Shown in pieces: positions 6,527-61,659 of a stretch of 64,000 bases of DNA. Each line of letters starts with the position of its first letter. The stretch's first letter is position 1. The position numbers and the translations under genes were made by a program. The stretch is from Rhodobacterales bacterium RIFCSPHIGHO2_02_FULL_62_130. GTDB lineage: Bacteria; Pseudomonadota; Alphaproteobacteria; Rhodobacterales; Rhodobacteraceae. The stretch lies in the NCBI GenBank assembly GCA_001828855.1, contig MHZT01000048.1, positions 186,001 to 250,000 of the forward strand, written 5' to 3'. The notes below the pieces were generated by a model. It was not told where the DNA came from, did no database searches, and saw only the letters and a program-made list of their open reading frames with translations.

Positions 6527-6561
6527 GGCCTCCGGCGGGGATATTTGAACGAAGAGGATGG
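6527..6561 (+). repeat. Box repeat family E, copy E1 (subtype b)
   Basis: GGCCTCCGGCGGGGATATTTGAACGAAGAGGATGG. Confidence 0.85.
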
Positions 6562-6563
6562 CG

Positions 6564-7031
6564 ATGGAACCGGTGGTGCGGGTGATCTGGGAAGACTGGG
6601 CGGATCGGTCCTTGCCGTTGCCCTCTTATGAAACGGCGGGGGCGGCGGGGGCGGATATTCGCGCCAATCTGCGCCCCGAAGATCGGGACAGCGGCTTTGT
6701 GCTGGACCCGATGCATCGGGCGATTGTGCCGACAGGCATCCGGGTGGAAATCCCGGCTGGCTTCGAGATGCAGATCCGGCCCCGATCCGGGCTGGCGGTG
6801 AAGTTCGGGATTTCCATTCCCAACAGTCCGGGAACGATCGACAGCGATTATCGCGGGCCTTTGGGGGTGGCTTTGGTCAATCTTGGGGCAGAACCCTACA
6901 CGGTCCATCATGGCGACCGCATCGCGCAATGTGTTGTGGCCCCTGTCGTGCAGGCGGGGTTCGAGGTGGTGGAGGCCTTGGGCGATACTGCGCGGGGTGC
7001 GGGCGGGTTCGGCTCGACGGGGCGGAAATGA
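6564..7031 (+). CDS. dut: dUTP diphosphatase (alternative ATG at 6558)
   Basis: [53 protein letters not shown]. Confidence 0.95.
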
Positions 7032-8065
7032 TGCTGGTTTTCGGGATGGCTTTGGCGCTGTGGGGGGCGGGTTGGGGCTTTGGCGCGCCCGCGCGGCTGC
7101 GCTGGGGCATGGTTGCGGCGCTGTGGGCGGCAGTGGTGCTGGCGCATCTGGTGCTGCCGGAAGGCGCTGCGCTGCGCGTGGCGACGGGCGGTGATGCGCG
7201 GGTCTGGGCGGTGCTGGGCGGCGTGGTGGCGCTGGGCCTTGGCTATCGCGCGGGGCTGGCGCGTCTGCGCGCGCGGGCGACGCCGGTTGCTGCCCCTGCC
7301 CAGACGGGCAGCTTCCGCGAGGCCGAGCTGGACCGTTACGCCCGCCATATCCTGCTGCGCGAGATCGGCGGACCGGGGCAAAAGCGCCTGAAAGCGGCGA
7401 AGGTTCTGGTGATCGGGGCGGGGGGGCTTGGATCACCCGCGCTATTGTATCTGGCGGCGGCGGGGGTTGGCACCATTGGCGTGATCGACGACGACACGGT
7501 GGATGCATCCAACCTGCAGCGGCAGATCATCCATAGCGATCAACGGCTTGGCATGGCAAAGGTGCAATCTGCGGAAATTGCCATGACCGCGCTGAACCCC
7601 TTTGTGCAAGTGCGCCCCTATCAGCGCCGCCTCACCGAAGACATGGCCGAGGCGCTGATTGCCGATTATGATCTGGTGCTGGATGGGACCGACAATTTCG
7701 ACACCCGCTATCTGGTCAACCGCATTGCCGCCAAGCTGGGCAAGCCCCTGATTTCCGCTGCGATCACCCAATGGGAAGGGCAGCTTTCGCTGTATGATCC
7801 CGCCCGTGGCGCGCCCTGCTATGCCTGCGTTTTCCCCGTGCGCCCTGCCGATGGCATGGTGCCGACCTGTGCCGAGGCGGGCGTGGCCGCGCCCTTGCCG
7901 GGTGTGATCGGGTCGATGATGGCGATGGAGGCGATCAAGCATATCACCGGCGCGGGTCAGACCTTGCGCGGGCGGCTGATGATCCATGACGCGCTTTATG
8001 CCGAAACGCGGGTGATTGGCATCAAGCGACGCGACGGATGCGAGGCATGTGGCGGGCTGCACTGA
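7028..8065 (+). CDS. MoeB/ThiF family E1-like adenylyltransferase with hydrophobic N-terminal extension
   Basis: ATGA overlap with dut; [68 protein letters not shown]. Confidence 0.9.
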
Positions 8066-8148
8066 TCTTTGGCCCGCAGGGGTGCTTGCAACCGCCCCGA
8101 AGCGTGGGCCATAGTCTGCACGATTACTTTGTGACAGGGAGTTCACCG

Positions 8149-8937
8149 ATGAAATTGACTGCTGCCTTTGCCGGTCTGGCCATGACCGTTGCCGCGACCG
8201 CCAGCTTTGCCCAAGCCTTGCCGGATCTGGAAGGCAAGGAAATCGTGATCGTCACCGAAAACGCCTATCCGCCGCTGCAATTTCTGGATGCTTCCGGCGC
8301 GGCCATCGGCTGGGAATATGATGCCGTGGCCGAACTGGCCAAGCGGCTGAACTTTACCGTGAAATACGAAAACATCTCGTGGGATGCGATGATTCCGGCG
8401 GTGTCGGAAGGCCAGTTTGATTTCGGCATGACCGGCATCACCATCCGCGACGACCGCAAGGAACAGGTCGATTTCTCGGATGCCTATATGCGGTCGGAAA
8501 TGGTGATGCTGGTCAAGGGCGACGAGGCGCGCTTTACCGATGCCGCCAGCTTTGCCGCCGATCCCGAACTGCTGATCGCCGCACAGCCCGGCACGACGCC
8601 CTTCTATACCGCCGTCTATGAAATCTTGGACGGCAACGAGGCTAACCCGCGCATCAAGCTGTTCGAAACCTTTGGCGCAACGGTCGAGGCGTTGAAGGCG
8701 GGCGATGTGGATCTGGTGCTGACCGATGGCACCGCAGGCGCGGGCTATGTCGAGGCGTCGGCAGGCGGGCTGAAGATCGTTGGCGACAAACTGGGGGTCG
8801 AGGATTTCGGCTTTATCTTCCCGAAAGGCTCGACCTTGGTGGCCCCGATCAACGCTGGCATTGCCGCGATGAAGGCCGATGGCACCATCGACGCGCTGAA
8901 CAAGAAATGGTTCCTTGACTACAAGATGGGCCAGTAA
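8149..8937 (+). CDS. Amino-acid-type ABC transporter substrate-binding protein
   Basis: Signal peptide [23 protein letters not shown]; family 3 SBP motifs [39 protein letters not shown]. Confidence 0.9.
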
Positions 8938-8976
8938 TGGCTTTCGCCCCAAGCGCAGGCTTGGGGCATTTTACCG

Positions 8977-9774
8977 ATGACGCCCAACCCGAAACATGAC
9001 GCGGATTTCCCGTGGTGGCTGGTTATTCTGGCCACCACGGCTGCGTGGCTGTTCTATGAGGTATGGGCCAGCGACGTCTATTCCCAAGCGATGGCGACGC
9101 TGTCCAAGGGCATCTGGCTGACGGTTGTTGTCACACTGGTGGCTTACGGGATGGCCTGCGCGCTGGGGCTGGCTTTGGCGATGGCGGGGCTGTCGCGCTT
9201 TGTGGTGCTGCGGCAACTGGCGCGGTTCTATATCGAGGTGATCCGCGGCGTGCCGATCATCGTGCTGCTGCTTTATGTCGCCTTCGTGGTGTCGCCCGCC
9301 TTTGTCTATGCCTTTAACTGGGTGACGGGGCCGCTGGGGTTTGACCCGTTGAAGACGCGGGACTTTCCGCTTTTGTGGCGGGCGGTGATCGCGCTGACCA
9401 TGGCCTATTCCGCCTTTCTGGCCGAGATTTTCCGCGCGGGCCTTCAGGCCGTCGACAAAGGCCAGATCGAAGCCGCGCAGGCGCTGGGCCTGAACGGCTG
9501 GCAACGTTTTCGCCATATCGTGTTCCCGCAAGCGTTCCGGATGATCCTGCCGCCCTTGGGCAATGATTTTGTTGCCATGGTGAAGGATTCCAGTCTGGTG
9601 TCGGTGCTGGGGGTTTCGGATATCACCCAGCTCGGCAAGGTTACGGCGGCGGGGAATTTCCGCTATTTCGAGACCTATAATGTGGTGGCGCTGCTGTATC
9701 TGACCATGACGATCACGCTGTCGCTGGTGCTGCGGCGGATTGAAACTCGTCTGAAAGCGCGCTCTGAACGCTAG
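8977..9774 (+). CDS. Amino acid ABC transporter permease (HisM/GlnP type)
   Basis: YIEVIRGVPIIVLLLYVAF, YSAFLAEIFRAGLQAVDKGQIEAAQALGLNGWQRF, KDSSLVSVLGVSDITQLGK. Confidence 0.93.
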   Translation: MTPNPKHDADFPWWLVILATTAAWLFYEVWASDVYSQAMATLSKGIWLTVVVTLVAYGMACALGLALAMAGLSRFVVLRQLARFYIEVIRGVPIIVLLLYVAFVVSPAFVYAFNWVTGPLGFDPLKTRDFPLLWRAVIALTMAYSAFLAEIFRAGLQAVDKGQIEAAQALGLNGWQRFRHIVFPQAFRMILPPLGNDFVAMVKDSSLVSVLGVSDITQLGKVTAAGNFRYFETYNVVALLYLTMTITLSLVLRRIETRLKARSER

Positions 9775-9780
9775 CGTCGG

Positions 9781-9816
9781 ATGCGCTCCGCGCGGGAGTA
9801 TTTGGGCCAAGATGAA
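9781..9816 (+). repeat. Box repeat E2 (subtype a)
   Basis: ATGCGCTCCGCGCGGGAGTATTTGGGCCAAGATGAA. Confidence 0.85.
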
Positions 9817-9875
9817 GGGCGCGGGCTGGACCTATCCTGCAACGCTGCCTAGGTTTGCCGCAAAGGAGACTTGCG

Positions 9876-11891
9876 ATGAATGTTTTGCTTTCGGATTGGA
9901 CCGGCGAATTTGGCCTGCCGCCCTTCGCCGCGATTTCGGATGAGGATTTCGGACCGGCCTTTGAGGCGGCGCTGGCAGAGGCGCGGGCGAATATCGCGGT
10001 GATTGCAGGGGCGACGGAGGCACCGACCTTTGCCAATACCATCGAGGCGATGGAACTGGCCGAAGGGCTGCTCGACCGTGTGGCAGGGGTGTTCTACAAC
10101 CTTGCCGGAGCCGACAGCACCCCTGCGCGCGAGGCGTTGCAGCGCGATCTGGCCCCGAAGATGAGCGCGTTTTCATCCGAGGTCACCAACAACCGCGCGC
10201 TGTTTTCTCGGATTGAAACGCTGTGGCAGGGGCGCGATGGCTTGGGTCTGACGGCAGAACAAGCGCGGGTATTGCAGCTTTACCGGCAGATGTTCGTGCG
10301 ATCTGGCGCGCTGTTGGAGGGGGCTGCGGCGGAACGGCTGACGGCGGTGAAATCGCGACTGGCGGTGCTGGGGACGCAGTTCAGCCAAAATTTGCTTGCG
10401 GATGAACGGGCTTGGTTCATGCCGCTGGCCGAGGCTGATCTGGAGGGGCTGCCCGATTTCGTCGTGGCTTCCGCCCGTGCGGCGGGCGAGGAAAAGGGCG
10501 CGGGTGGGCCGGTGGTGACACTGTCGCGGTCGCTGATCGTGCCGTTCCTGCAATTCTCGCCCCGCCGTGCCTTGCGGCAAAAGGCCTATGAGGCGTGGGT
10601 GGCGCGCGGGGCCAATGGCGACGCCAATGACAACCGCGCCATTGCCGCCGAGATATTGGCGCTGCGCCATGAGCGGGCGCAGGCCTTGGGCTATGCCAGC
10701 TTTGCCGATTACAAGCTGGAGCCAGAGATGGCGAAAACCCCCGCCGCCGTGCGCGATCTGCTGCAACGAGTGTGGACGCCTGCCAAGGCCAAGGCTATGG
10801 CCGATGCCGCCATTCTGGAGGCGCGTCTGCATGCCGATGGCATCGCAGGGCCGTTGGAGCCGTGGGACTGGCGCTATTATTCCGAACAGCGCCGCGTGGC
10901 CGAACATGATCTGGATGAGTCCGTCCTGAAACCCTATCTGGGGCTGGAGGCGATGCTGGCTGCCTGCTTCGATTGCGCCAACCGCCTGTTCGGGCTGGAG
11001 TTTCGCCCGCTGGACACGCCGCTTTACCACCCCGACGCCCGCGCTTGGGAGGTGAGCCGCGCAGGCCAGCATATCGCGGTGTTCATAGGCGACTACTTTG
11101 CGCGCGGGTCGAAACGCTCGGGAGCGTGGTGTTCTGCGATGCGGTCCCAGCGCAAGCTGGGCGGCGAGGTGCGGCCCATCGTGGTGAATATCTGCAACTT
11201 TGCCAAAGGCGATCCGGCGCTGCTGTCCTATGACGATGCGCGCACGCTGTTCCATGAATTCGGCCATGCGCTGCACCAGATGCTGTCGGATGTGACCTAC
11301 GGGTTCATTTCCGGCACCTCGGTCGCGCGGGATTTCGTCGAACTGCCCAGTCAGCTATATGAACACTGGCTGGAAGTGCCAGAGGTGCTGGAGAAACACG
11401 CGCGGCATTGGCAGACGGGGGCACCGATGCCTGCCGATATGTTGCAGCGGTTGCTGGCGGCTGGGACTTACGATCAGGGCTTTGCGACGGTGGAATTCCT
11501 GTCCTCGGCCTTTGTCGATCTGGCGTTCCACGAGGGCACGCCGCCCGCCGATCCGATGCAGAAGCAGGCCGAAGTGCTGGAGGGCTTGGGCATGCCCCGT
11601 GCGATCCGCATGCGCCACGCGACGCCGCATTTCGCGCATGTGTTCTCGGGAGACGGTTATTCCAGCGGCTACTACAGCTATATGTGGTCCGAGGTGATGG
11701 ATGCCGATGCCTTTGCCGCGTTTGAGGAGGCGGGTGATGCCTTTGATCCGGCTGTGGCGCAGCGGTTGGAGAGGTTTATCCTGTCGGCAGGCGGATCAGA
11801 AGAGCCCGATGCGCTTTACACCAAATTCCGGGGCAAGATGCCGGGGGTAGAGCCTTTGCTGAAAGGGCGGGGCTTGTTGGACGTGGCGTAA
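9876..11891 (+). CDS. M3 family metallopeptidase (oligopeptidase A / Dcp type)
   Basis: HEFGHALHQM zinc motif; AAGGAG upstream of ATG 9876. Confidence 0.93.
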   Translation: MNVLLSDWTGEFGLPPFAAISDEDFGPAFEAALAEARANIAVIAGATEAPTFANTIEAMELAEGLLDRVAGVFYNLAGADSTPAREALQRDLAPKMSAFSSEVTNNRALFSRIETLWQGRDGLGLTAEQARVLQLYRQMFVRSGALLEGAAAERLTAVKSRLAVLGTQFSQNLLADERAWFMPLAEADLEGLPDFVVASARAAGEEKGAGGPVVTLSRSLIVPFLQFSPRRALRQKAYEAWVARGANGDANDNRAIAAEILALRHERAQALGYASFADYKLEPEMAKTPAAVRDLLQRVWTPAKAKAMADAAILEARLHADGIAGPLEPWDWRYYSEQRRVAEHDLDESVLKPYLGLEAMLAACFDCANRLFGLEFRPLDTPLYHPDARAWEVSRAGQHIAVFIGDYFARGSKRSGAWCSAMRSQRKLGGEVRPIVVNICNFAKGDPALLSYDDARTLFHEFGHALHQMLSDVTYGFISGTSVARDFVELPSQLYEHWLEVPEVLEKHARHWQTGAPMPADMLQRLLAAGTYDQGFATVEFLSSAFVDLAFHEGTPPADPMQKQAEVLEGLGMPRAIRMRHATPHFAHVFSGDGYSSGYYSYMWSEVMDADAFAAFEEAGDAFDPAVAQRLERFILSAGGSEEPDALYTKFRGKMPGVEPLLKGRGLLDVA

Positions 11892-11892
11892 A

Positions 11893-11972
11893 GGCGGGGG
11901 CTAGCCCCCTAGTCTGTGTTTTCTGAAAGAAAACACAGACTCCCCCCCCAGAGTATTTGGGCCAAGATGAAA
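11893..11972 (+). repeat. Box repeat E3, full composite A-B-C (subtype a)
   Basis: GGCGGGGGCTAGCCCCCT / hairpin / CCCCCCCAGAGTATTTGGGCCAAGATGAA. Confidence 0.88.
11911..11941. terminator. Perfect hairpin after the M3 peptidase (module B of repeat E3)
   Basis: AGTCTGTGTTTTCT GAA AGAAAACACAGACT. Confidence 0.6.
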
Positions 11973-11975
11973 CCG

Positions 11976-12941
11976 TCAGGGGCGCAGGTTTCTGGGCGGG
12001 TGGCCAAAGGCGGTGCGGAAGGCGCGTGACAGGGTTGAGGGGGAGGAGAATCCGCAGCGCAGCGCCACCTCGGCCAAGGGGTGGCGCGTGTCGGTGATCA
12101 TCCGGCGTGCGGCGGCAAGGCGCAGGGACAGGGCGTAGGCGGCAGGTGTCAGGCCAAGATTCTCGCGGAAGATTTGCTCCAGACGGCGGCGGGACAGACC
12201 CAAGGTAGCGGCGATTTCGGCGCTGGTTTCGGGGGTATCAAGGCGGGATTCCATCCGTGCGATGGCGGCGGCCACGCGCGGATCAAGGCGCGGGTCGGGT
12301 TTGGCGGGGCTGACCTGCGGCTCATTGCCGTCGCGGGCGGTGGTGATGAAGCTGGCCGCGACTTGCAGCGCCAGCGCCGCCCCGTGCCGTGCGCGGATCA
12401 GGTGCAGCATCAGATCGGCGGCGGGGGCGGCCCCGCCTGCGGTAAAGCGCGCGCGGTCGATCACAAAGCGGTCGGGCACCACATCAACTGCGGGGTGGGC
12501 GGAGGCGAAATCCTCGTGATCCTCCCAATGCACGGTGGCGCGGTGGCCGTTCAGCAGGCCCGCCCGCGCCAGCACCCAAGCGCCTGCATCAATCCCGCCG
12601 ATGGCGGCAAAGCGCGGGGCCATGCGGGCCAGATCGCGGATCAGGGGGGCGGTGGCCATCTCGGACTGGCGAAAGCCCGCGATCACGATCAGCGCCTCGG
12701 CCCCTTCGGCAGCGGACAGCGGGCCATCGGAGGGCAGCGAAATCCCGCAGGTCAGTGGCACCGCGCGCCCGTCGGGTGACACCACACGCCAGCGGTAAAT
12801 ATCCGCGCCAAGGTGGCGGTTGGCGGCGCGCAAAGGGTCCAGCGTCGAGGCGACCTCAAGGATCGAGGCCTGTGGCAGCACCAGCAGGGCGAGGGTTAGC
12901 GGTTGCCGCGATGCAGCGAAGATCGTTGCGCTTTTTGCCAT
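11976..12941 (-). CDS. GlxA/CdhR-type transcriptional regulator (DJ-1/PfpI-like domain plus AraC HTH)
   Basis: MAKSATIFAASRQPLTLALLVLPQASILEVASTLDPLRAAN; C-terminal AraC HTH LSRRRLEQIFRENLG, LAEVALRCGFSSPSTLSRAFRTAFG; divergent from the carnitine operon. Confidence 0.87.
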   Translation of the reverse strand: MAKSATIFAASRQPLTLALLVLPQASILEVASTLDPLRAANRHLGADIYRWRVVSPDGRAVPLTCGISLPSDGPLSAAEGAEALIVIAGFRQSEMATAPLIRDLARMAPRFAAIGGIDAGAWVLARAGLLNGHRATVHWEDHEDFASAHPAVDVVPDRFVIDRARFTAGGAAPAADLMLHLIRARHGAALALQVAASFITTARDGNEPQVSPAKPDPRLDPRVAAAIARMESRLDTPETSAEIAATLGLSRRRLEQIFRENLGLTPAAYALSLRLAAARRMITDTRHPLAEVALRCGFSSPSTLSRAFRTAFGHPPRNLRP

Positions 12942-13014
12942 GAATATTGCGTATATCGTCAAGCGTAAGCGCGCAAGCCCGCTATGCTGCGCGCAACCAC
13001 TCAGGAGGATTCCC

Positions 13015-13929
13015 ATGCCCTTGGCCATGAACCGCGAAGTTTTCATCACCTGTGCCGTCACCGGATCGGGCGGCACGCAGGACCGCAGCCCGCATGTGCC
13101 GCGCAGCCCCGAGCAGATTGCGAAATCGGCCATCGATGCCGCCAAGGCCGGTGCCGCCGTGGTGCATTGCCATGTGCGCGACCCCGAAACCGGCAAACCC
13201 AGCCGCGATGGCCGCCTTTACCGCGAAGTGACCGAGCGTATCCGTGACTCCGGCACCGATGTGGTGCTGAACCTGACGGCGGGGATGGGTGGCGACATCT
13301 ACTTCGAAGGCTCCGAGGATATGGGCCGCATGGGTCCGCGCTCGGACATGGCGGGGGCGACCGAACGGGTGGCACATGTCGTCGAATGCCGCCCCGAGAT
13401 CTGCACGCTTGATTGCGGCACGATGAACTTCAACGAGGCCGACTATGTGATGGTCAACACCCCCGGCATGTTGCGCGATATGGCGCGGCGGATGACGGCC
13501 GCGGGTGTGCGGATCGAGATCGAGGCCTTTGACACCGGCCATCTGTGGCTGGCGAAAGAACTGGCGAAAGAAGGCGTGATCCCCGCGCCGACCTTGGTGC
13601 AGTTGTGTATGGGCGTGCCGTGGGGCGCGCCGGATGATCTGAACACCTTCATGGCGATGGTCAATAATGTGCCTGCCGACTGGCATTGGTCGGCATTTTC
13701 CATCGGCCGCAACCAGATGCCCTATGTGGCGGCTTCTGTGCTGGCCGGTGGCAACGTTCGCGTCGGGCTGGAGGACAACCTGTGGCTGGACAAGGGCGTT
13801 CTGGCCACCAACGCGCAGCTTGTCGAACGCGCAGCCAGCATCATCGAAAACCTTGGCGCGCGGGTGATCACCCCTGCCGAGGTGCGGGCCAAACTGAAAC
13901 TTGAAAAGCGGGCACCGCTGGGGAAATGA
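13015..13929 (+). CDS. BKACE family beta-keto acid cleavage enzyme (3-dehydrocarnitine cleavage predicted)
   Basis: REVFITCAVTGSGGTQDRSPHVPRSPEQIA, HCHVRDPETGKPSRD, LNLTAGMGG; AGGAGG RBS. Confidence 0.9.
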   Translation: MPLAMNREVFITCAVTGSGGTQDRSPHVPRSPEQIAKSAIDAAKAGAAVVHCHVRDPETGKPSRDGRLYREVTERIRDSGTDVVLNLTAGMGGDIYFEGSEDMGRMGPRSDMAGATERVAHVVECRPEICTLDCGTMNFNEADYVMVNTPGMLRDMARRMTAAGVRIEIEAFDTGHLWLAKELAKEGVIPAPTLVQLCMGVPWGAPDDLNTFMAMVNNVPADWHWSAFSIGRNQMPYVAASVLAGGNVRVGLEDNLWLDKGVLATNAQLVERAASIIENLGARVITPAEVRAKLKLEKRAPLGK

Positions 13930-15398
13930 GCATGACACGCAAGGCAGCAATCATTGGCGGCGGGGTTATCGGCGGCGGTTGGGCGGCACGTTTCCTGCTG
14001 AACGGCTGGAACGTCTCGGTCTTCGACCCCGACCCGCAGGCCGAGCGCAAGATCAGCGAAGTGCTGGCCAACGCCCGCGCCGCGCTTCCCGCGCTTAGTG
14101 ATATTCCGATGCCGAAGGAGGGCGCGCTCTCCTTCGCGCAGACGATTACAGAGGCCGTGGAAGGCGCGCATTACATTCAGGAATCCGTGTCCGAGCGGCT
14201 GGATCTGAAGCATCGCGTCTTTGCACAAATCCAACAATCGGCAGAACTTGGCACGCCGATTGGATCTTCGACCAGCGGGTTCAAGCCGTCCGAATTGCAG
14301 GAAGGTGCCGCCAATCCGGCGGTGATTTTCGTGGCTCACCCGTTCAACCCCGTCTACCTCTTGCCGCTGGCCGAGGTAGTGCCGTCCGCGAAATCCGACG
14401 CAGGCGTGATCGAGAACGCCAAGCAGATCCTGCGCGAGATCGGCATGTTCCCGCTGCATGTCCGCAAGGAAATCGACGCCCATATCGCCGACCGTTTCCT
14501 TGAGGCCGTCTGGCGTGAAGCGCTTTGGCTGGTGAAAGACGGTGTCGCCACCACCGAGGAAATCGACGAGGCGATCCGCATGGGTTTCGGCCTGCGCTGG
14601 GGCCAGATGGGCCTGTTTGAAACCTACCGCGTCGCGGGCGGCGAGGCGGGCATGAAGCATTTCATGGCGCAATTCGGCCCCTGCCTGACGTGGCCCTGGA
14701 CCAAGCTGATGGACGTGCCGGAATTCAACGACGAGTTGGTGGACCTGATTGCAGGCCAGTCCGACGCGCAATCCGGCCACCATACGATCCGCGAACTAGA
14801 GCGTATCCGTGACAGCAACCTGATCGGTTTCCTGCGCGCGCTGAAGGATCGCAACTGGGGCGCGGGCAAGGTGTTGCGCGAACATGACGACCGCCGCCGC
14901 ACCGCCTTCCACGAGGAAGGCCGTGGGGCAGAAGGCGCGCCAATGGTCATGGCGCAGATGCAGGTGCTGCCCGGCTGGATCGACTATAACGGCCACATGA
15001 CCGAAAGCCGCTATCTGTTTGCGGCCTCGGAAACCTGCGATGCCTTCTTGCGGCTGATCGGGGCGGATATGGATTATGTGAAGGGCGGCCACAGCTATTA
15101 CACCGCTGAAAACCACATCATGCATCTGGATGAGGCAAAGCTGGGCGACCGTCTGATCGGCACGCTGCAAGTGCTGGCGGCGGATGAAAAGCGCCTGCAT
15201 CTGTTCATTCGCATCCTGAAAGACGGCGAACCTGTGGCGACCATCGAACAGATGCTGCTGCATGTCGATATGGCCAAGGGCAAGACCTGCACCGCCGCCC
15301 AATCCGTGCTCGACCGCCTGATGCCCATCGCCGCCGCCCATGCAGGTCTGCCGCGCCCCGAGGCCGCTGGCCGCTACGTCGGTCAAAGGAAAGCCTGA
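13926..15398 (+). CDS. L-carnitine dehydrogenase fused to a C-terminal hot-dog thioesterase
   Basis: AAIIGGGVIGGGWAARFLLNGWNV Rossmann; HPFNPVYLLPLAEVVPS; C-terminal MQVLPGWIDYNGHMTESRYLFAASET thioesterase; ATGA overlap with the BKACE gene. Confidence 0.9.
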   Translation: MSMTRKAAIIGGGVIGGGWAARFLLNGWNVSVFDPDPQAERKISEVLANARAALPALSDIPMPKEGALSFAQTITEAVEGAHYIQESVSERLDLKHRVFAQIQQSAELGTPIGSSTSGFKPSELQEGAANPAVIFVAHPFNPVYLLPLAEVVPSAKSDAGVIENAKQILREIGMFPLHVRKEIDAHIADRFLEAVWREALWLVKDGVATTEEIDEAIRMGFGLRWGQMGLFETYRVAGGEAGMKHFMAQFGPCLTWPWTKLMDVPEFNDELVDLIAGQSDAQSGHHTIRELERIRDSNLIGFLRALKDRNWGAGKVLREHDDRRRTAFHEEGRGAEGAPMVMAQMQVLPGWIDYNGHMTESRYLFAASETCDAFLRLIGADMDYVKGGHSYYTAENHIMHLDEAKLGDRLIGTLQVLAADEKRLHLFIRILKDGEPVATIEQMLLHVDMAKGKTCTAAQSVLDRLMPIAAAHAGLPRPEAAGRYVGQRKA

Positions 15399-15401
15399 GC
15401 C

Positions 15402-16565
15402 ATGCACTTTGGACTGTCCGAAGAACAGCAGATGATCGTCGACACCACCCGCGCCTTTGTCGAGAACGAGTTGTTCCCGCATGAGGCCGAGGTGGAACGC
15501 ACCGGCGTCCTGCGCCGCGAGTTGCTGAAGGAAATCTCGCAAAAGGCTGTGGCGGCAGGGCTTTATGCCGCCAACATGCCCGAAGACGTGGGTGGCGCGG
15601 GGCTGGATACGCTGACTTGGCTGCTTTACGAAAAGGAACTGGGCAAGGCCAATTACGCGCTGCACTGGAACTGCGTGGCGCGGCCTTCGAACATCCTGTT
15701 GGCCTGCACGCCGGAACAGCGCGAGCAATACCTGTTCCCCTGCATCCGCGCCGAAAAGCACGATTGCCAAGCCATGACCGAACCCGGATCGGGGTCTGAC
15801 CTGCGCTCGATGAAGGCTTTCGCGCGGGCGGATGGCGATGATTTCATCCTGAACGGCACCAAGCATTTCATCAGCCACGCCGATGTCGCCGATTTCGCCA
15901 TCGTCTGGGTGGCCACCGGCGAAGAAGACACCCCACGCGGCCCGAAAAAGCTGATCACGGCCTTTCTGGTCGATAAAGGCACGCCGGGCTTCACTGTCCG
16001 CGACGGCTATCGCAACGTCAGCCACCGCGGCTATAACAACATGATCCTCGAATTTGACGATTGCCGGCTGAACAAGCGGCAGGTGCTGGGCGAGGTTCAC
16101 AAGGGTTTTGAAGTGGCGGGCAAATGGCTGGGCGCCACCCGCCTGCAAGTCGCCTCCACTTGCCTTGGCCGTGCGGAACGTGCGCTTGGCCACGCGATTT
16201 CCTACGCTGCGGAGCGCAAGCAATTCGGCCAGCAGATCGGTAAATTCCAAGGCATCAGCTTCAAGCTTGCCGATATGGCCATGGAATTGAAGGCCGCCGA
16301 ATTGCTGACGCGCGAGGCCGCTTGGAAATACGACCAAGGCAGCGTGACCGAAGCCGATATGTCGATGGCGAAACTGAAAGCGACAGAAGTTCTGGCCATG
16401 ATCGCGGACGAGGCGATCCAGATTCACGGCGGCATGGGCCTGATGGACGAGTTGCCGCTGGAACGCATCTGGCGCGACGCGCGGGTGGAACGCATCTGGG
16501 AAGGCACCTCGGAAATCCAGCGCCATATCATCAGCCGCGAGTTACTCCGCCCCTTGGGCGCATGA
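15402..16565 (+). CDS. Acyl-CoA dehydrogenase family protein (CaiA / gamma-butyrobetainyl-CoA dehydrogenase candidate)
   Basis: AMTEPGSGSDLRSMKAFA, YAAERKQFGQQIGKFQGISFKLADMA, QIHGGMGLMDELPLERIWRDARVERIWEGTSEIQ. Confidence 0.92.
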   Translation: MHFGLSEEQQMIVDTTRAFVENELFPHEAEVERTGVLRRELLKEISQKAVAAGLYAANMPEDVGGAGLDTLTWLLYEKELGKANYALHWNCVARPSNILLACTPEQREQYLFPCIRAEKHDCQAMTEPGSGSDLRSMKAFARADGDDFILNGTKHFISHADVADFAIVWVATGEEDTPRGPKKLITAFLVDKGTPGFTVRDGYRNVSHRGYNNMILEFDDCRLNKRQVLGEVHKGFEVAGKWLGATRLQVASTCLGRAERALGHAISYAAERKQFGQQIGKFQGISFKLADMAMELKAAELLTREAAWKYDQGSVTEADMSMAKLKATEVLAMIADEAIQIHGGMGLMDELPLERIWRDARVERIWEGTSEIQRHIISRELLRPLGA

Positions 16566-16573
16566 CGCAGGCA

Positions 16574-16652
16574 GCGGGGGTTTCACACCCCCGGCTTGAT
16601 TTCCCCTAGGGGAAATCAAGCTCCCCCGTGGGATATTTAGGAACAGATGAAG
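16574..16652 (+). repeat. Box repeat E4, full composite (subtype c)
   Basis: CGGGGGTTTCACACCCCCG / GCTTGATTTCCCCTAGGGGAAATCAAGC / TCCCCCGTGGGATATTTAGGAACAGATGAAGG. Confidence 0.88.
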
Positions 16653-16771
16653 GTAACGGGATGTTAATCATTCGATTCCATAACGGATCTACCGAACAGG
16701 GGGGGACCCCGATGACGGTAACAGGTGAAGATTCCCTGCCTCGTTCGATCGGGGCAGGGCGTCTTGCCAGC

Positions 16772-16859
16772 CATTTCATCTGTTCTCAAATATCCTCGGG
16801 GAAGCCTGAATTTTCCCTTGGGAAAATTCGGGCGCGGGGGTGGAAAACCCCCGGAGCTG
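16772..16859 (-). repeat. Box repeat E5, full composite (subtype c)
   Basis: Minus strand: CCGGGGGTTTTCCACCCCCG / GAATTTTCCCAAGGGAAAATTC / CTTCCCCGAGGATATTTGAGAACAGATGAAA. Confidence 0.88.
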
Positions 16860-16881
16860 CCCAAGCGCGCGGAGGTCGGGG

Positions 16882-18873
16882 ATGAAAGACCTGAACCGCC
16901 TGCTACGCCCGAAATCCATCGCCGTTCTGGGCGCGGGCTGGGCGCTGAACGTGATCGAGCAGTGCCGCAAGATGGGCTTCACCGGCCCGATCTGGCCCGT
17001 GCATCCGACCAAGGCCGAGATCGGCGGGTTGCGGGCCTATCCGTCGCTTGCCGATCTGCCCCATGCCCCCGATGCGACCTTCATCGGCGTGAACCGCTTT
17101 GCCACCATCGACGTGGTGGCAGAACTGGCTGCAATGGGGGCGGGCGGGGCGATCTGTTTTGCCTCGGGCTGGACCGAAGCCGGAGAGCCGGAGTTGCAGG
17201 CCAAACTGGTCGCAGCCGCGGGTGACATGCCGATCCTTGGTCCGAACTGCTATGGCGTGATCAACTATCTGGACGGCGCGCTCTTGTGGCCCGATCAGCA
17301 TGGCGGGGTGCCGGTGCAAAAGGGCGTGGCGCTGGTCAGCCAATCCTCGAACATCGTGATCAATCTGGGGATGCAGAAACGCGCGCTGCCGGTGGCCTAT
17401 GTCGCCTGTCTGGGCAATGCCGCCGTTGTGGGCTTGGCCGATCTGGCGGGCGCGCTGCTGGATGATCCACGCGTCACCGCCCTTGGCATGTATATCGAAG
17501 GCATCGACGACGCCCCTGCCTTTGCCGCGCTGGCCGAGCGCGCACGCGCCATGGGCAAGGGCGTGGTCTGCATCAAATCCGGCAAGACCGAGCTGTCGCG
17601 CACCGCCGCCGCCTCGCATACCGCGTCTTTGGCAGGCGGCGGCGCGGCCTCATCCGCCTTCCTGCGCCAGATCGGTGTGGCCGAGGTGAACACGCCATCC
17701 GAACTGATCGAGACGCTGAAGATCTTCCACACCCACGGCCCCCAGATTGGTGCCCGCCTGTGCAGCCTGTCCTGCTCTGGCGGAGAGGCGGGTCTGGTGG
17801 CCGATCTGGCCGCACCCTTTGGTATCGACTTCCCGCCAGTGCCAGTGGATGTTAAAACCCGACTGAACGAAATCCTCGGATCGATCGTCACGGTGGCCAA
17901 CCCGCTGGATTATCACACCTTTATCTGGGGAGACGGGCCTCGCACGACGGATGTGTTTACAACCATGCTGTCGGGCTATGACGCGGGTATCTACATCATC
18001 GACCCGCCCCGCAATGACCGCTGCGATCCGTCTGGCTATCAGCCTGCGCTGGATGCCATTGTCGCGGCCCAAGCCAGCACCGGCAAGCCCGCCTTCCCAG
18101 TAGCCTCGATGCCCGAGAATTTCGACGAAGCCTATGCCCTGCGCCTGATGGATCAGGGCGTGGTCACGCTGATGGGGCTGGAAACCGCGTTGGCGGCGAT
18201 CAAGGCGGCACAGACTGCGCCCGCGCAACTTGGCTGGCGTCCGGCTGCGGCGATTGCCCCGCGCGACAACCATATGCTGACCGAGGCCGAGGGCAAATCC
18301 TTGCTTGCATCGGCGGGCGTACTGGTTCCGCGTGCGGTCACGGGGGCGACATTGGCCGAAGTCACCGCGAAATCCGCCGATTTGACCGCTCCCCTCGCCC
18401 TCAAAGGTCTAGGTTTCGCCCATAAAACCGAAGCCGGTGCCGTGCGCCTTGGCCTGACCACTCTGGAAGGTCAGCCCGAAATGGCGGGTGCCACCGGTTA
18501 TCTGGCCGAAGAAATGGTCACGGGCGCGGTTGGGGAAATCCTGCTGGGCCTGCGACGCGATCCGGTCTACGGCATCAGCCTGACGGTTGGCATGGGCGGT
18601 GTTACGGCCGAGGTTCTGGCCGATACCGTCACCCTGATCCTGCCTGCGACCGCCGCAGCAATTCTGGATGCGATGCGCGGCCTGCGGCTTTGGCCGCTGC
18701 TGGACGGGTATCGCGGGCGGGCCAAGGCCGACATGGCGGCGGTGGCGGCGATTGCTGTGCAGTTGGGCGATCTGATGCTGGCCGACGGCAGCCTTGAAGA
18801 AATCGAAATCAACCCGATCCTCGTGCGGCCCCAAGGGGCTGTCGCGGTCGATGCTCTTATCAGAAAGGCTTAA
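16882..18873 (+). CDS. Acyl-CoA synthetase, NDP-forming type (CoA-binding, ligase-CoA and ATP-grasp domains)
   Basis: LLRPKSIAVLGAG, GPNCYGVINYLDG, SQSSNIVINLGMQKR, SHTASLAGGGAASSAFLRQIGV, LADGSLEEIEINPILVRPQGAVAVDALI. Confidence 0.9.
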   Translation: MKDLNRLLRPKSIAVLGAGWALNVIEQCRKMGFTGPIWPVHPTKAEIGGLRAYPSLADLPHAPDATFIGVNRFATIDVVAELAAMGAGGAICFASGWTEAGEPELQAKLVAAAGDMPILGPNCYGVINYLDGALLWPDQHGGVPVQKGVALVSQSSNIVINLGMQKRALPVAYVACLGNAAVVGLADLAGALLDDPRVTALGMYIEGIDDAPAFAALAERARAMGKGVVCIKSGKTELSRTAAASHTASLAGGGAASSAFLRQIGVAEVNTPSELIETLKIFHTHGPQIGARLCSLSCSGGEAGLVADLAAPFGIDFPPVPVDVKTRLNEILGSIVTVANPLDYHTFIWGDGPRTTDVFTTMLSGYDAGIYIIDPPRNDRCDPSGYQPALDAIVAAQASTGKPAFPVASMPENFDEAYALRLMDQGVVTLMGLETALAAIKAAQTAPAQLGWRPAAAIAPRDNHMLTEAEGKSLLASAGVLVPRAVTGATLAEVTAKSADLTAPLALKGLGFAHKTEAGAVRLGLTTLEGQPEMAGATGYLAEEMVTGAVGEILLGLRRDPVYGISLTVGMGGVTAEVLADTVTLILPATAAAILDAMRGLRLWPLLDGYRGRAKADMAAVAAIAVQLGDLMLADGSLEEIEINPILVRPQGAVAVDALIRKA

Positions 18874-18874
18874 T

Positions 18875-19669: not shown

Positions 19670-19749
19670 TCCTCCACGCGCGACAAATCTTGTCGGAAAC
19701 GGGCGCGGGCCGATAACCCCGCGCCTATAGGGTCAACTCCGCCCCGTGT

Positions 19750-19798
19750 TTCATCTTGGCCCAAATACTCCGGGGTCCGGGGCAGCGCCCCGGAGGCC
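19750..19798 (-). repeat. Box repeat E6 (subtype a, single hairpin)
   Basis: Minus strand: GGCCTCCGGGGCGCTGCCCCGGACCCCGGAGTATTTGGGCCAAGATGAA. Confidence 0.85.
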
Positions 19799-19815
19799 AC
19801 AAGGATAAATCCGCC

Positions 19816-21429: not shown

Positions 21430-21525
21430 CCCCACAAGGCTGAGCCGCCCTTGCCCCCATCGAGGGGGCCAAGTGCGGCGCTTCCGCGGGATGTGCCGGA
21501 CAGGTCGGGTAAGTGGCGTCGACAG

Positions 21526-21563
21526 GAGCCTCCGGCGGGGATATTTGTGCAAAGGGGATGGGG
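21526..21563 (+). repeat. Box repeat E7 (subtype b)
   Basis: GAGCCTCCGGCGGGGATATTTGTGCAAAGGGGATGGGG. Confidence 0.87.
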
Positions 21564-21616
21564 CCGGATGGGTTTTCCCCTTGGATGGACAGTGCAGTAC
21601 CGCGCGCGGTTCCGCA

Positions 21617-21655
21617 CATCCTCTTTGCATAAATATCCCCGCCGGAGGCCCCACG
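21617..21655 (-). repeat. Box repeat E8 (subtype b)
   Basis: Minus strand: GCGTGGGGCCTCCGGCGGGGATATTTATGCAAAGAGGATG. Confidence 0.87.
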
Positions 21656-21691
21656 CTTGCAACGCGGATGCTGCCTGCAGGAAAGGGGTAG

Positions 21692-21711
21692 GGTGCGTGA
21701 TTTCACGCACC
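21692..21711. repeat. Palindrome family P, copy P1
   Basis: GGTGCGTGATTTCACGCACC. Confidence 0.85.
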
Positions 21712-21716
21712 TTGGC

Positions 21717-23225: not shown

Positions 23226-23406
23226 GGGCAGGCTCCTGCGGGATTGGGTGCGTTTGCAATATGGGTGCAGCGTGTCGAGGGACAGGGCAAGAGGGCATTT
23301 TCACAACTGTGGCACGGGCGTCGTTATCGCGTGGCAAAGCGCCGCATTCACGATAGGCTTGACGTCTGCGGGCGGGCCTGATGGCACGAAGAAAAAAGGA
23401 GCGCAG

Positions 23407-25446
23407 ATGCGGGTTGTGACAGAGTTTCCCCACGCGGTGGTCGAGACGCCCGATATGGGTATCACGCTTTCCGATGGCTGCCGGTTGTCGGCGCGAGTCT
23501 GGATGCCGGAAGACGCCGCCATCAATCCCGTGCCAGCCGTGCTGGAATATATCCCCTACCGCAAGCGCGACGGGACCCTGCCTCGGGACGAGATCATGCA
23601 CCCCTATGTGGCCGGTCATGGCTATGCCACGGTGCGGGTCGACATGCGCGGCAATGGTGACTCTGAAGGGCTGATGGCCGATGAATACACCATTCAGGAA
23701 CTGGCCGACGCCTGCGAGGTGATCGAGTGGCTGGCAGCGCAGCCGTGGTGCTCGGGCGCGGTGGGGATGATGGGGAAAAGCTGGGGCGGGTTCAACTGCC
23801 TGCAAACCGCTTTCCTGCAACCGCCCGCGCTGAAGGCGGTGATCTCGGTCTGCTCGACCACTGACCGCTTTGCCGATGACATCCACTACAAGGGCGGCTG
23901 TCTGCTGGGCGAGAATTTCGGCTGGGGGGCGGTGATGCTGTCCTATTCCAGCCGCCCTGCCGATCCGGCCCTGCGGGCGGACTGGCGCGAAGACTGGCTG
24001 CGGCGGCTTGAGGCCGAACCATGGCTGGCCCCGCGCTGGGCCGACATGCAAGAGCGCAATGACTATTGGAAGCACGGTTCGGTCTGTGAAGATTACAGCC
24101 GTATGACGGTTCCGGTGCTGTCATGGGGCGGCTGGGCCGACAACTATATGAACACGGTGTCGCATCTGGTGGAAAACGTGCCTGCACCTGTGAAGGGCAT
24201 CGTCGGGCCTTGGGTGCATCAATACCCGCACACTGCCGTTCCCGGCCCGCAGGTCGGCTTTCTGCAAGAGGCGCTGCGCTGGTGGGACCGCTGGCTGAAG
24301 GGCATCGACAACGGGGCCGAGGCTGATCCGGCCTACCGCGCCTACATGATCCATTCCGAGGCCCCCGATGCTTCGGCAAGGCATCGCGCCGGGCATTGGG
24401 TGGCTGAGGCGGAATGGCCGAGCGCGCGGGTTTCGCGGCATGTCTTGGCGCTTGGGGCGGGCGCCGGAGAGGGCCGTCTGCCCTCCCCGGACCCCTCCCG
24501 AGGATATTTGCGCGAAGAGGATGGGGAAGCCTTTCAGGTGAAACTGGCGACGCCTCAGCATCTGGGGATGCACACGGGCGAGTTTTTCCCGATGGGGCTG
24601 AACGCGGAAATGCCCGGCGATCAGGCGGGGGATGATGCGCTGTCGGTTTGCTTTGACGGCGATGTGCTTGCGGCTGATCTGGACTTGCTGGGGGCTGCGC
24701 GGCTGACCCTGCTGGTTTCCAGCGACAAGCCTTTGGGCTTTGTGGTGGCGCGGCTGAATGATGTGGCCCCCGATGGATCATCGGTGCGGATCGCGCATGG
24801 GATGCTGAACCTGTGCCACCGCGACAGCATGGAAGAGCCTGCGCCGATGCTGCCGGGGCAAGAGGTGGAGGTGTCTTTTGCCATCGACCACATGGCCTAT
24901 CGGTTGGCGGCGGGGCATCGGCTGCGGCTGGCGCTGTCAAACAGCTATTGGCCCTTTGTCTGGCCCTCGCCCGAGGCGGGGGAGTTGACGATCACGGGCG
25001 GGGCCTTGGACCTGCCAGTGCATCAGGGCAGCGTCAATGAGTGGACGCCACCGCCGTCCGAAGGGGCTCAGCCTTGGGCGCATCGGGTGATCCGTGCGGG
25101 CAAGACCACCCGCAAGATCGAGACCGATCTGATCACGGGCCGCGTGGCCTTGGTGGTGAATGACGATCTGGGTGATGCCGAAAACCTGACCCACGGGCTT
25201 TGCACCGGTGAAACCATGTCGGAACTGTGGTACATCCACCCCGATGACCCGCTGTCCGCCCGCGCCGTGCATACATGGGAGCAGCGCCTGTCGCGCGGGG
25301 ATTGGGCGGTGAAAACCTATGCCAATGCCGAGATGACCGCCAGCGCCACACATCTGAACATGAAGGCCACTCTGACCGCATGGGAAGGTGATCAGGTGAT
25401 CTTTACCCGCAGTTTCGATGACAAGGTGCCGCGCCGCTTTGTCTGA
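23407..25446 (+). CDS. CocE/NonD family (X-Pro dipeptidyl-peptidase-like) hydrolase
   Basis: ARVWMPEDAAINPVPAVLEYIPYRKRDG, VDMRGNGDSEG, GAVGMMGKSWGGFNCLQTA, C-terminal beta domain. Confidence 0.9.
   Translation: MRVVTEFPHAVVETPDMGITLSDGCRLSARVWMPEDAAINPVPAVLEYIPYRKRDGTLPRDEIMHPYVAGHGYATVRVDMRGNGDSEGLMADEYTIQELADACEVIEWLAAQPWCSGAVGMMGKSWGGFNCLQTAFLQPPALKAVISVCSTTDRFADDIHYKGGCLLGENFGWGAVMLSYSSRPADPALRADWREDWLRRLEAEPWLAPRWADMQERNDYWKHGSVCEDYSRMTVPVLSWGGWADNYMNTVSHLVENVPAPVKGIVGPWVHQYPHTAVPGPQVGFLQEALRWWDRWLKGIDNGAEADPAYRAYMIHSEAPDASARHRAGHWVAEAEWPSARVSRHVLALGAGAGEGRLPSPDPSRGYLREEDGEAFQVKLATPQHLGMHTGEFFPMGLNAEMPGDQAGDDALSVCFDGDVLAADLDLLGAARLTLLVSSDKPLGFVVARLNDVAPDGSSVRIAHGMLNLCHRDSMEEPAPMLPGQEVEVSFAIDHMAYRLAAGHRLRLALSNSYWPFVWPSPEAGELTITGGALDLPVHQGSVNEWTPPPSEGAQPWAHRVIRAGKTTRKIETDLITGRVALVVNDDLGDAENLTHGLCTGETMSELWYIHPDDPLSARAVHTWEQRLSRGDWAVKTYANAEMTASATHLNMKATLTAWEGDQVIFTRSFDDKVPRRFV
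24469..24527 (+). repeat. Box repeat E9 (subtype b) inside the CocE-type CDS
   Basis: GAGGGCCGTCTGCCCTC then CCCGGACCCCTCCCGAGGATATTTGCGCGAAGAGGATGGGG. Confidence 0.85.
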
Positions 25447-30545: not shown

Positions 30546-30593
30546 GCATCATCTTGGCATAAATACTCCCGCCGGAGGCCCCACGCCTCCGGC
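30546..30593 (-). repeat. Box repeat E10 (subtype a)
   Basis: Minus strand: GCCGGAGGCGTGGGGCCTCCGGCGGGAGTATTTATGCCAAGATGATG. Confidence 0.86.
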
Positions 30594-31512: not shown

Positions 31513-31516
31513 TGTC

Positions 31517-38394: not shown

Positions 38395-38403
38395 CCTGTT
38401 TCT

Positions 38404-42050: not shown

Positions 42051-42120
42051 CATCCTCTTCGCACAAATATCCACGGGGGAGGCCGCGATGCAATCGCGGA
42101 CGGGGGCGGTAAGCCCCCTA
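42051..42120 (-). repeat. Box repeat E11, full composite (subtype b)
   Basis: Minus strand: GGGGGCTTACCGCCCCCG / CCGCGATTGCATCGCGG / CCTCCCCCGTGGATATTTGTGCGAAGAGGATG. Confidence 0.88.
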
Positions 42121-44464: not shown

Positions 44465-44474
44465 TCAAAAAGAA

Positions 44475-44496
44475 GGGTGCGTGGAATCACGCACCC
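44475..44496. repeat. Palindrome family P, copy P2
   Basis: GGGTGCGTG GAAT CACGCACCC, directly after ettA. Confidence 0.8.
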
Positions 44497-44678
44497 TACA
44501 CCGGACGATCTGTGGCAAACGAGGCGACAGGCCCCGCCGGGGGGCTGGCAGCCTTTGCAGCGCCTGTCCTAGCTCGGGACCTTTTTTGTTCTTTTTATTA
44601 CAATGTGTTAGCTGTGCCGCGTTAAGGGATTCTTAAGGTTTGGCGAGATTCTGCCCTTGCCCACCCCCCCTAAAAACC

Positions 44679-56008: not shown

Positions 56009-56014
56009 CCGGCG

Positions 56015-60334: not shown

Positions 60335-60340
60335 CCCCAA

Positions 60341-60360
60341 GGTGCGTGAAATCACGCACC
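60341..60360. repeat. Palindrome family P, copy P3
   Basis: GGTGCGTGAAATCACGCACC. Confidence 0.85.
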
Positions 60361-60386
60361 CTACCCCTTGTGTTGTGGGTTCCGCC

Positions 60387-60423
60387 CATCCTCTTTGCAC
60401 AAATATCCCCGCCGGAGGCACCC
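60387..60423 (-). repeat. Box repeat E12 (subtype b)
   Basis: Minus strand: GGGTGCCTCCGGCGGGGATATTTGTGCAAAGAGGATG. Confidence 0.87.
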
Positions 60424-60436
60424 TGCATTTCGGTCA

Positions 60437-60472
60437 GGTGCCTCCGGCGGGAGTATTTGAACCAAGGTGAAT
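60437..60472 (+). repeat. Box repeat E13 (subtype a)
   Basis: GGTGCCTCCGGCGGGAGTATTTGAACCAAGGTGAAT. Confidence 0.86.
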
Positions 60473-60483
60473 GCAGGGGGTAG

Positions 60484-60503
60484 GGTGCGTGATTTCACGC
60501 ACC
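60484..60503. repeat. Palindrome family P, copy P4
   Basis: GGTGCGTGATTTCACGCACC. Confidence 0.85.
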
Positions 60504-60589
60504 TTTCGTTCGAGCTGCCGTCTTTGGTCTTTTGAAACGCGTTTCTGCTGTGTTCTGATGGCCGCAAGGCAGGGCTTTGGAACGGGGGA

Positions 60590-61558
60590 ATGATGCGGAT
60601 TTTGATCACGGGTGCGGCTGGCATGATCGGGGCCAAGCTGGTGGCGCGGTTGCTGGCCGACGGGCAGTTGGGGGGCAAGGCGATTGCGGGGCTGATCTTG
60701 CATGATCTTGTGGCCCCGTTGCCTTTGCCCTCGGTTATTCCGGTGGTTTGTCTGGCGGGCGATCTGGCGGCGCGGGGGGCCAGCGAGGCATTGGTCGCGC
60801 ATCGCCCGGATGTGATCTTCCATTTGGCGGGCGTTGTCTCGGGGGAGGCCGAGGCAAATTTCGAGCTTGGGTACAGCGTCAATCTGGATGGCACCCGTGC
60901 GTTGTTCGAGGCAATCCGGAGCGCGGGCTATGGGCCGCGGGTGGTCTATGCCTCGACCACTGCGGTTTTTGGCGGGCCGTTTCCGGAGGTCATCCCCGAT
61001 GATTTCGCGCCGACGCCGCAGTCCTCTTATGGCACGCAAAAGCTGATGGGGGAGGCGCTTTTGGCGGATTACACGCGGCGCGGGGTTATGGACGGGGTTG
61101 GACTGCGCCTGCCGACCATATGTGTGCGGCCCGGCAAGGCGAACCGTGCGGCGTCGAGTTTCTTTTCTGGCATCATCCGCGAGCCGCTGAACGGGCTTGT
61201 GGCCAATCTGCCGGTTGCGCGCGATTGGGTGCATACAATGGCCAGCCCGCGCGCGGCGGTGGGGTTTTTCCTGCATGCGGCGGTGATGGACACCGCCCGC
61301 ATCGGGCATCGGCGCAGTCTGACGCTGCCGGGGGTTGCGGTGACGGTGGCCGAGCAGATTGCGGCCCTGACCCGCGTGGCGGGGCCAAAGGTGGCGTCGC
61401 TGATCGTGGAGGCACCGGACCCGGCTGTCTGGGCCATTGTGCAGACTTGGCCGCGCCGCTTTGCCGCCAGCCGCGCGCGGGAACTGGGATTTATGGCCGA
61501 GACCGATTTTGACCAGATCATTCAGGCCTATATCGAGGATGATCTGCGGCGCGGGTGA
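60590..61558 (+). CDS. NAD-dependent epimerase/dehydratase, D-erythronate dehydrogenase (DenD)-like
   Basis: RILITGAAGMIGAKLVARLL; DVIFHLAGVVSGEAEANFELGYSVNLDGTRALFEAIR; SSYGTQKLMGEALLADYTRRGVMDGVGLRLPTICVRPGKAN. Confidence 0.88.
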   Translation: MMRILITGAAGMIGAKLVARLLADGQLGGKAIAGLILHDLVAPLPLPSVIPVVCLAGDLAARGASEALVAHRPDVIFHLAGVVSGEAEANFELGYSVNLDGTRALFEAIRSAGYGPRVVYASTTAVFGGPFPEVIPDDFAPTPQSSYGTQKLMGEALLADYTRRGVMDGVGLRLPTICVRPGKANRAASSFFSGIIREPLNGLVANLPVARDWVHTMASPRAAVGFFLHAAVMDTARIGHRRSLTLPGVAVTVAEQIAALTRVAGPKVASLIVEAPDPAVWAIVQTWPRRFAASRARELGFMAETDFDQIIQAYIEDDLRRG

Positions 61559-61579
61559 AAATGGCTGTGCTGAAAGAAA

Positions 61580-61659
61580 GGCGGGGGTTTCACACCCCCG
61601 CGCCGGATTGTGCCAATCCGGCTTTCCCCGTGGGATATTTGGGCAAAGAGGATGGGGAA
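61580..61659 (+). repeat. Box repeat E14, full composite (subtype b)
   Basis: GGCGGGGGTTTCACACCCCCGC / GCCGGATTGTGCCAATCCGGC / TTTCCCCGTGGGATATTTGGGCAAAGAGGATGGGG. Confidence 0.88.

What the first reader, a model, noticed from the sequence alone, without database searches (positions are those of the whole stretch)
6527..61659. Dispersed modular repeat family with a conserved G(GA/AG)TATTT box, 14 copies in 64 kb
A C/G-rich run followed by GGATATTT or GAGTATTT and a purine-rich tail (CCAAGATGAA, CAAAGAGGATG or GAACAGATGAA) recurs at 6527, 9781, 11893, 16574, 16772(-), 19750(-), 21526, 21617(-), 24469, 30546(-), 42051(-), 60387(-), 60437 and 61580. Thirteen copies are intergenic and one is intragenic. 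This was read directly from the sequence. REP/BIME-like behaviour is inferred from copy number, hairpins and inverted pairing. I do not know a named family it belongs to, and no RAYT transposase is visible in the window.
Basis: partly seen in the sequence, partly recalled or inferred. Interest (0 to 1): 0.75.

Follow-up and report, generated by a model that had tools for sequence, protein, structure and literature searches.

The report
Rhodobacteraceae gene-end palindrome repeat family
Roughly 600 copies of a short hairpin-plus-tag DNA element sit at the ends of genes in this bacterium, with each related genus using its own spelling of the tag; they are arranged like the known REP/BIME repeats but lack the enzyme and tag that define REPs.

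Summary
The unit is a GC arm, G(GA/AG)TATTT, a free 3-nt spacer and a fixed ~10-nt tail, in three tail classes. Type I arms usually get their hairpin from an inverted second copy at a fixed 47-50 nt pitch. Type II copies carry their own hairpins, whose middle stem differs in sequence but always folds. Copies are almost never in genes (4/239), enriched between convergent genes (98 against 37 expected) and depleted between divergent ones (12 against 67). The family is confined to Rhodobacteraceae. Each genus spells box and tail differently while the spacer stays free. One ABC-operon site is filled in 14 genomes and empty (4-7 nt) in six. No RAYT is detectable and there is no GTAG tag at the hairpin foot. 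I call it a RAYT-less, REP/BIME-like family of gene-end elements whose core is probably read by an unknown factor. A terminator role is plausible but unproven. No prior description was found in the open-access text searched.

The parts
6527..6560 (+). type I half-site (no complementary arm nearby), box GGA, tail class T2; 21 nt before the dUTPase start, so its tail may serve as ribosome-binding site
   Evidence: fold z +1.2
9783..9817 (+). type I-like hairpin CTCC..GGAG, box GAG, tail T1; after the ABC permease gene 8977-9774
11896..11972 (+). type II element: G-run hairpin, variable stem AGTCTGTGTTTTCT..AGAAAACACAGACT, C-run, GAG-TATTT, T1; between convergent genes
   Evidence: z -3.65
16576..16652 (+). 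type II element with tail T3
   Evidence: z -3.0
16774..16852 (-). type II element with tail T3, opposite strand, same gap as 16576-16652
19749..19798 (-). GC hairpin CCTCCGGGGCGCTGCCCCGGACCCCGGAG, tail T1, antisense between tandem genes (enoyl-CoA hydratase, GMC oxidoreductase)
21527..21560 (+). type I half-site, tail T2, in a convergent gap
21617..21650 (-). type I half-site, tail T2, tail-to-tail with the previous copy (93 nt)
24466..24523 (+). intragenic copy in the CocE-like gene 23407-25446, read in frame as PSRGYLREEDG
30547..30593 (-). type I copy with own hairpin GCCGGAGGCGTGGGGCCTCCGGC, tail T1, antisense in a 67-nt tandem gap
42051..42118 (-). type II element with tail T2, sense, after the gene 42118-42681
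60387..60472 (.). head-to-head pair (60405- T2 and 60454+ T1, pitch 49) forming one palindrome; more than a dozen other places in this genome match the surrounding ~170 bp
   Evidence: z -8.3
61583..61654 (+). type II element with tail T2; relative G155 has a type I hairpin with the same core at this place
60339..60505 (.). flanking palindromes AAGGTGCGTGAAATCACGCACCCTACCCCTTG (60339-60370 and 60474-60505), a separate GTAG-tagged repeat enclosing the pair
   Evidence: I4, I11, I14

Best explanation
A RAYT-independent, REP/BIME-like family of mosaic palindromic elements of Rhodobacteraceae that sits at gene ends. The unit is directional: GC arm, box G(GA/AG), TATTT, free 3-nt spacer, fixed ~10-nt tail. 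A hairpin is supplied either by a second inverted unit at a fixed 47-50 nt pitch (type I) or by a self-contained module of G-run hairpin, variable stem and C-run (type II). Shown: unit, pitch, modules, gene-end placement, filled versus empty site, genus dialects. Inferred: modules spread by copying or conversion through a machinery not identified; box, TATTT and tail are kept because a trans-acting factor or RNA polymerase reads them on either side of the unconstrained spacer; the hairpins punctuate transcription or protect 3' ends between convergent genes, as proposed for BIMEs.
For: 239 copies in 2.05 Mb, no control match at 12 bits or more, few intermediate scores. Gap counts conv 98, div 12, tandem 123 against 37, 67, 129 expected, chi-square p about 2e-32; 4 in genes. 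Head-to-head pitch 47-50 nt in 36 pairs, tail-to-tail 46-47 in 10. Type II middle stems: 54 of 54 fold better than shuffles (mean z -4.6) though median similarity between them is 0.52. Box-tail coupling 119/121 for T1 and 82/83 for T2 with 16-18 different spacers per class. ABC-operon site: element in 14 genomes (gaps 81-103 nt), absent in six (gaps 4-7 nt), same orientation wherever present. Genus dialects with free spacer. Outside the family only chance-level hits. No Y1 transposase.
Against: No mobilising enzyme and no binding factor identified. Core conservation exceeds what a decaying selfish repeat should show. Solitary type I copies mostly lack a partner arm (5 of 39 have one). Empty sites were shown clearly at one locus only. 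Empty versus filled could in part be deletion: L081 keeps a tail remnant.
Confidence: 0.5

Rival explanations
1. They are primarily intrinsic transcription terminators of Rhodobacteraceae: GC hairpin followed by a weak U-tract UAUUUNNN (8 nt, about the length of the RNA-DNA hybrid), with a conserved downstream DNA tail that assists release; head-to-head pairs are bidirectional terminators.
For: Hairpin directly before TATTT in most copies; TATTT present in the dialects of all genera examined, although the searches were seeded on it; strong convergent enrichment; at two orthologous gene ends an AT-rich terminator-like hairpin stands in one species where another has the element; orientation ratio 42:29 not different from that of T-run hairpins, 120:67, p = 0.47.
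Against: Only 4 T in the tract, and the consensus scan does not call them. No exclusion between elements and T-run hairpins. Sense copies occur in likely operons such as substrate-binding protein/permease and coaBC-dut, and an antisense copy is kept inside an ABC operon across genera. Some solitary type I copies have no stable fold. Termination alone does not predict genus-specific tails.
Confidence: 0.27
2. A purely selfish mobile repeat spread by an unidentified transposase or reverse-transcription mechanism and merely tolerated downstream of genes.
For: Filled and empty sites; modular copies such as C3:125372 and C6:258620 with 91% identical upstream parts and different tails; no significant orientation bias; depletion from divergent gaps and genes.
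Against: Spacer varies freely while box and tail stay almost fixed, so copies are old yet conserved; few decayed copies; element kept across genera at one site; no Y1 transposase.
Confidence: 0.13
3. A DNA uptake or self-recognition sequence analogous to DUS/USS, with the tail as the recognised word and gene-end hairpins as co-opted terminators.
For: Hundreds of near-invariant copies, dialects between related genera, inverted pairs at gene ends as in Neisseria and Pasteurellaceae; no detectable match to the pair in plasmid or phage records.
Against: Almost none in coding sequence (4/239), whereas most DUS/USS copies are not in terminators (PMC1852404); copies carry long hairpin modules not needed for uptake; no uptake specificity known to me in this family.
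Confidence: 0.05

Closest known systems
REP / BIME elements of enterobacteria and pseudomonads (REPINs)
   Same: More than 100 extragenic palindromic copies, alternating orientation at regular spacing, mosaic modules, 3' gene-end location, lineage-specific sequence classes
   Different: No RAYT/Y1 transposase in the genome, no GTAG/CGTC tag at the hairpin foot; instead TATTT-N3-tail 3' of the hairpin; variable middle stem in type II
Rho-independent terminators
   Same: GC hairpin followed by a T-containing tract, at convergent gene ends
   Different: Weak T-tract, conserved sequence-specific tail beyond the expected release point, genus dialects, both orientations in tandem gaps
DNA uptake sequences (Neisseriaceae DUS dialects, Pasteurellaceae USS)
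   Same: Sharp motif, hundreds of copies, dialects, inverted pairs at gene ends
   Different: Longer bipartite motif with free spacer, almost absent from genes, no uptake data
Intergenic repeat families of alphaproteobacteria (recalled only: Caulobacter intergenic repeats, Rickettsia palindromic elements)
   Same: Dispersed palindromes in alphaproteobacterial genomes
   Different: Not compared by sequence here; no description of this motif found in the library searched

Membership tests
REP/BIME (RAYT-associated) | More than 100 short palindromic extragenic copies per genome | tested here: met
   239 in 2.05 Mb, 4 in genes
REP/BIME (RAYT-associated) | Regularly spaced copies in alternating orientation | tested here: met
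   47-50 nt head-to-head in 36 pairs, 46-47 nt tail-to-tail in 10; definition from PMC2817692 abstract
REP/BIME (RAYT-associated) | GTAG or CGTC tag at one end of the palindrome | tested here: not met
   Box is GAG or GGA followed by TATTT in T1-T3 units; definition from PMC3733652
REP/BIME (RAYT-associated) | RAYT (Y1_Tnp, PF01797) in the genome | tested here: not met
   none in own genome; three weak hits, at most 22.7 bits, among 15 genus genomes
Intrinsic terminator | Stable hairpin directly before the T-tract | tested here: inconclusive
   true of paired type I and most type II copies; solitary type I copies mostly lack a partner arm and are only weakly more stable than shuffles
Intrinsic terminator | T-tract of at least 5 T in 8 | tested here: not met
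   TATTTNNN; the motif sites are not called by the terminator scan of 6001-25999
Intrinsic terminator | Sense orientation to the upstream gene | tested here: inconclusive
   42:29, p = 0.15; T-run hairpins 120:67
Intrinsic terminator | RNA 3' ends map to the site | not testable with these tools
   no RNA data
DUS/USS | Hundreds of copies of a sharp motif with dialects | tested here: met
DUS/USS | Most copies lie outside terminator-like gene-end sites | tested here: not met
   4/239 in genes, most of the rest at gene ends
DUS/USS | Uptake bias | not testable with these tools
   needs transformation assay
Rfam families | Match above gathering score | tested here: not met
   only SRP RNA in the window

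The most novel reading that the evidence does not exclude
The bipartite core (TATTT, free spacer, tail) is the target of an undiscovered, rapidly co-evolving DNA- or RNA-polymerase-associated factor, so that each Rhodobacteraceae genus carries its own genome-wide gene-end code of several hundred sites (a new termination/insulation system, or a third independent self-recognition sequence system).
Probability: 0.18. Interest if true: 0.88.

Novelty: new variant of a known kind. Interest (0 to 1): 0.6.

Why it matters
If right, many Rhodobacteraceae genera carry a repeat system of hundreds of conserved gene-end elements that I could not find named. It would be a REP-like family without a RAYT, and its per-genus dialects would give a natural comparative experiment for finding the factor that reads it. 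It also bears on where transcripts end in a family of marine and freshwater model bacteria.

Tried and rejected
Membership in RAYT-type REPs: rejected. Rfam family: none at gathering score. Mutual exclusion with T-run terminators as proof of shared function: no signal, and the orientation control was not discriminating. Intragenic copy as a Rickettsia-type in-frame insertion: not supported, the alignment to cocaine esterase shows no extra length there. 5S rRNA ends as an independent terminator test: no 5S found in this assembly; six tRNAs found in the 40 stretches scanned, too few to test. Coupling of spacer to flanking positions: no overall mutual information in T1 (one position of 68 at z 4.4). 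Literature by sequence string and by terms: nothing relevant; the library is open-access only.

Full report
OBSERVATION. The 14 sites are real. A weight matrix of 30 positions around TATTT, trained on the genome's own copies, returns exactly these 14 in the window. In 2.05 Mb of the same genome it finds 239 copies at 17 bits or more; most score above 28, few are intermediate, and the reversed sequence gives none at 12 bits or more and one at 8 or more. That extrapolates to about 580 copies. The window (22 per 100 kb) is the densest stretch sampled; the mean is 11.6 and contig C30 has 2.8. The window is G000:C48:186001-250000. Its genus is most likely Cypionkella, because the same-genus contig G161:C8 (157,283 bases) has the length and region of a named Cypionkella record, L072.

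ANATOMY. Each unit reads: GC arm, box GGA or GAG, TATTT, three free bases, a fixed tail. In this genome there are three tail classes: T1 CCAAGATGAA with box GAG (119/121), T2 CRAAGAGGAT with box GGA (82/83), T3 AACAGATGAA with box GGA (26/27); 16-18 different spacers occur in T1 and T2 and 8 in T3. Spacer identity shows no overall mutual information with flanking positions, apart from one position of 68. Type I arms (GCCTCCGGCGGG) are mostly paired: 36 head-to-head pairs lie at a pitch of 47-50 nt and form palindromes of about -34 kcal/mol, and 10 tail-to-tail pairs lie at 46-47 nt. Type II units mostly stand alone (71 of 78). In 54 of the 78 a G-run hairpin (GGGGG..CCCCC), a middle stem and a C-run can be parsed before the box; all 54 middle stems fold better than shuffles (mean z -4.6) while their sequences are largely unrelated (median similarity 0.52), which argues for selection on structure. 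Of 39 solitary type I arms only five have a complementary arm upstream, so most of these are half-sites.

PLACEMENT. Of 233 intergenic copies with two flanking genes, 98 lie between convergent, 12 between divergent and 123 between tandem genes, against 37, 67 and 129 expected by length (chi-square p about 2e-32); 4 of 239 lie in predicted genes although 91% of the sequence is coding. In tandem gaps solitary copies point with the gene 42 times and against it 29 times (p = 0.15). A crude set of T-run hairpins gives 120:67, not significantly different, so orientation does not decide between a REP and a terminator reading. Sense copies occur between genes that look co-transcribed (substrate-binding protein/permease; amidohydrolase pair; coaBC/dut), and antisense copies in others.

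EVOLUTION. The strict pattern occurs in 53 of 150 genera of the family and a more general one in 46 of 150; several hits of either are single, chance-level ones. Outside the family 289 class-wide genomes give only chance-level hits of 0-2. Each genus has its own spelling with a free spacer, for example GAG..CCACRATGAA (G010), GGA..CCAGAATGAA (G051), GAG..GCAAGATGAA (G041), GAG..ACAAGATGAA (G125), GGG..CCAAGATGAA (G039). Between an ABC permease and its ATPase gene the element is present, in the same antisense orientation, in 14 genomes (gaps 81-103 nt) and absent in six whose genes are 4 or 7 nt apart. At that one site the hairpin loop (CCAGC or TTTCACA) and the tail class change between genomes. 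At another site a head-to-head pair is present in three Cypionkella genomes, while a fourth (L081) retains only one tail, written in the CCAGTATGAA form it uses elsewhere. Two copies in this genome are 91% identical upstream but carry different tails. Modules therefore appear to be exchanged or converted, and old copies keep a conserved core.

WHAT IT IS NOT. There is no Y1/RAYT transposase in this genome and only three weak hits, at most 22.7 bits, among 15 genus genomes. The foot of the hairpin has no GTAG or CGTC tag. The window has no Rfam match to it. The exact type I/T1 pattern occurs once in viral contigs, and the pair has no detectable match in plasmid or phage records.

MECHANISM. The anatomy works like a BIME: palindromic, alternating, modular, at gene ends. 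Invariant words on both sides of a free spacer, genus dialects and near-absence of decayed copies suggest that something reads the core. Two readings fit. In the first, the hairpin plus UAUUUNNN is a weak intrinsic terminator assisted by the tail. In the second, a DNA-binding factor reads the core and the hairpins are secondary. Searches do not settle this. I rate a RAYT-less BIME-like gene-end element at 0.5, primarily a terminator at 0.27, purely selfish at 0.13 and uptake signal at 0.05.

NOVELTY. No description was found by sequence string or by terms in the open-access library. Subscription literature could not be searched, so priority is not certain. I file it as a new variant of a known kind: it works like REP/BIME, but two defining REP features were tested and not met.

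Noticed in passing
21683-21730, 44469-44502, 60339-60370, 60474-60505: A second repeat, GTAGGGTGCGTGATTTCACGCACC, a GTAG-tagged palindrome (classic REP look) that often follows T1 tails, again without a RAYT in the genome.
   Followed up: partly
31450-31514, 38372-38399, 6458-6485: AT-rich palindromes such as AAAAATTTTCGTCCGAAAATTTTT that look like bidirectional terminators; at some orthologous gene ends they stand where a relative has the repeat element.
   Followed up: partly
6542-6564: The T2 tail AAGAGGATG lies where the ribosome-binding site of the dUTPase gene should be; other T2 copies sit 21-29 nt before predicted starts.
   Followed up: no
61744-61841: Bacterial small SRP RNA (Rfam RF00169), nearly identical in relative G155.
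   Followed up: no
24466-24523: Intragenic element in a CocE/NonD hydrolase gene is read in frame (PSRGYLREEDG) without extra length against cocaine esterase.
   Followed up: partly
L205 4195-4224: One 12.5-kb IMG/VR contig carries an exact type I/T1 element; provirus, gene transfer agent or mis-binned host DNA not checked.
   Followed up: no
G000 C30 (other contigs C2, C7, C9, C49): Element density is low on C30 (2.8 per 100 kb); five strong RepA (repABC) hits lie on C2, C7, C9 (two) and C49, so the genome probably has several extrachromosomal replicons.
   Followed up: no
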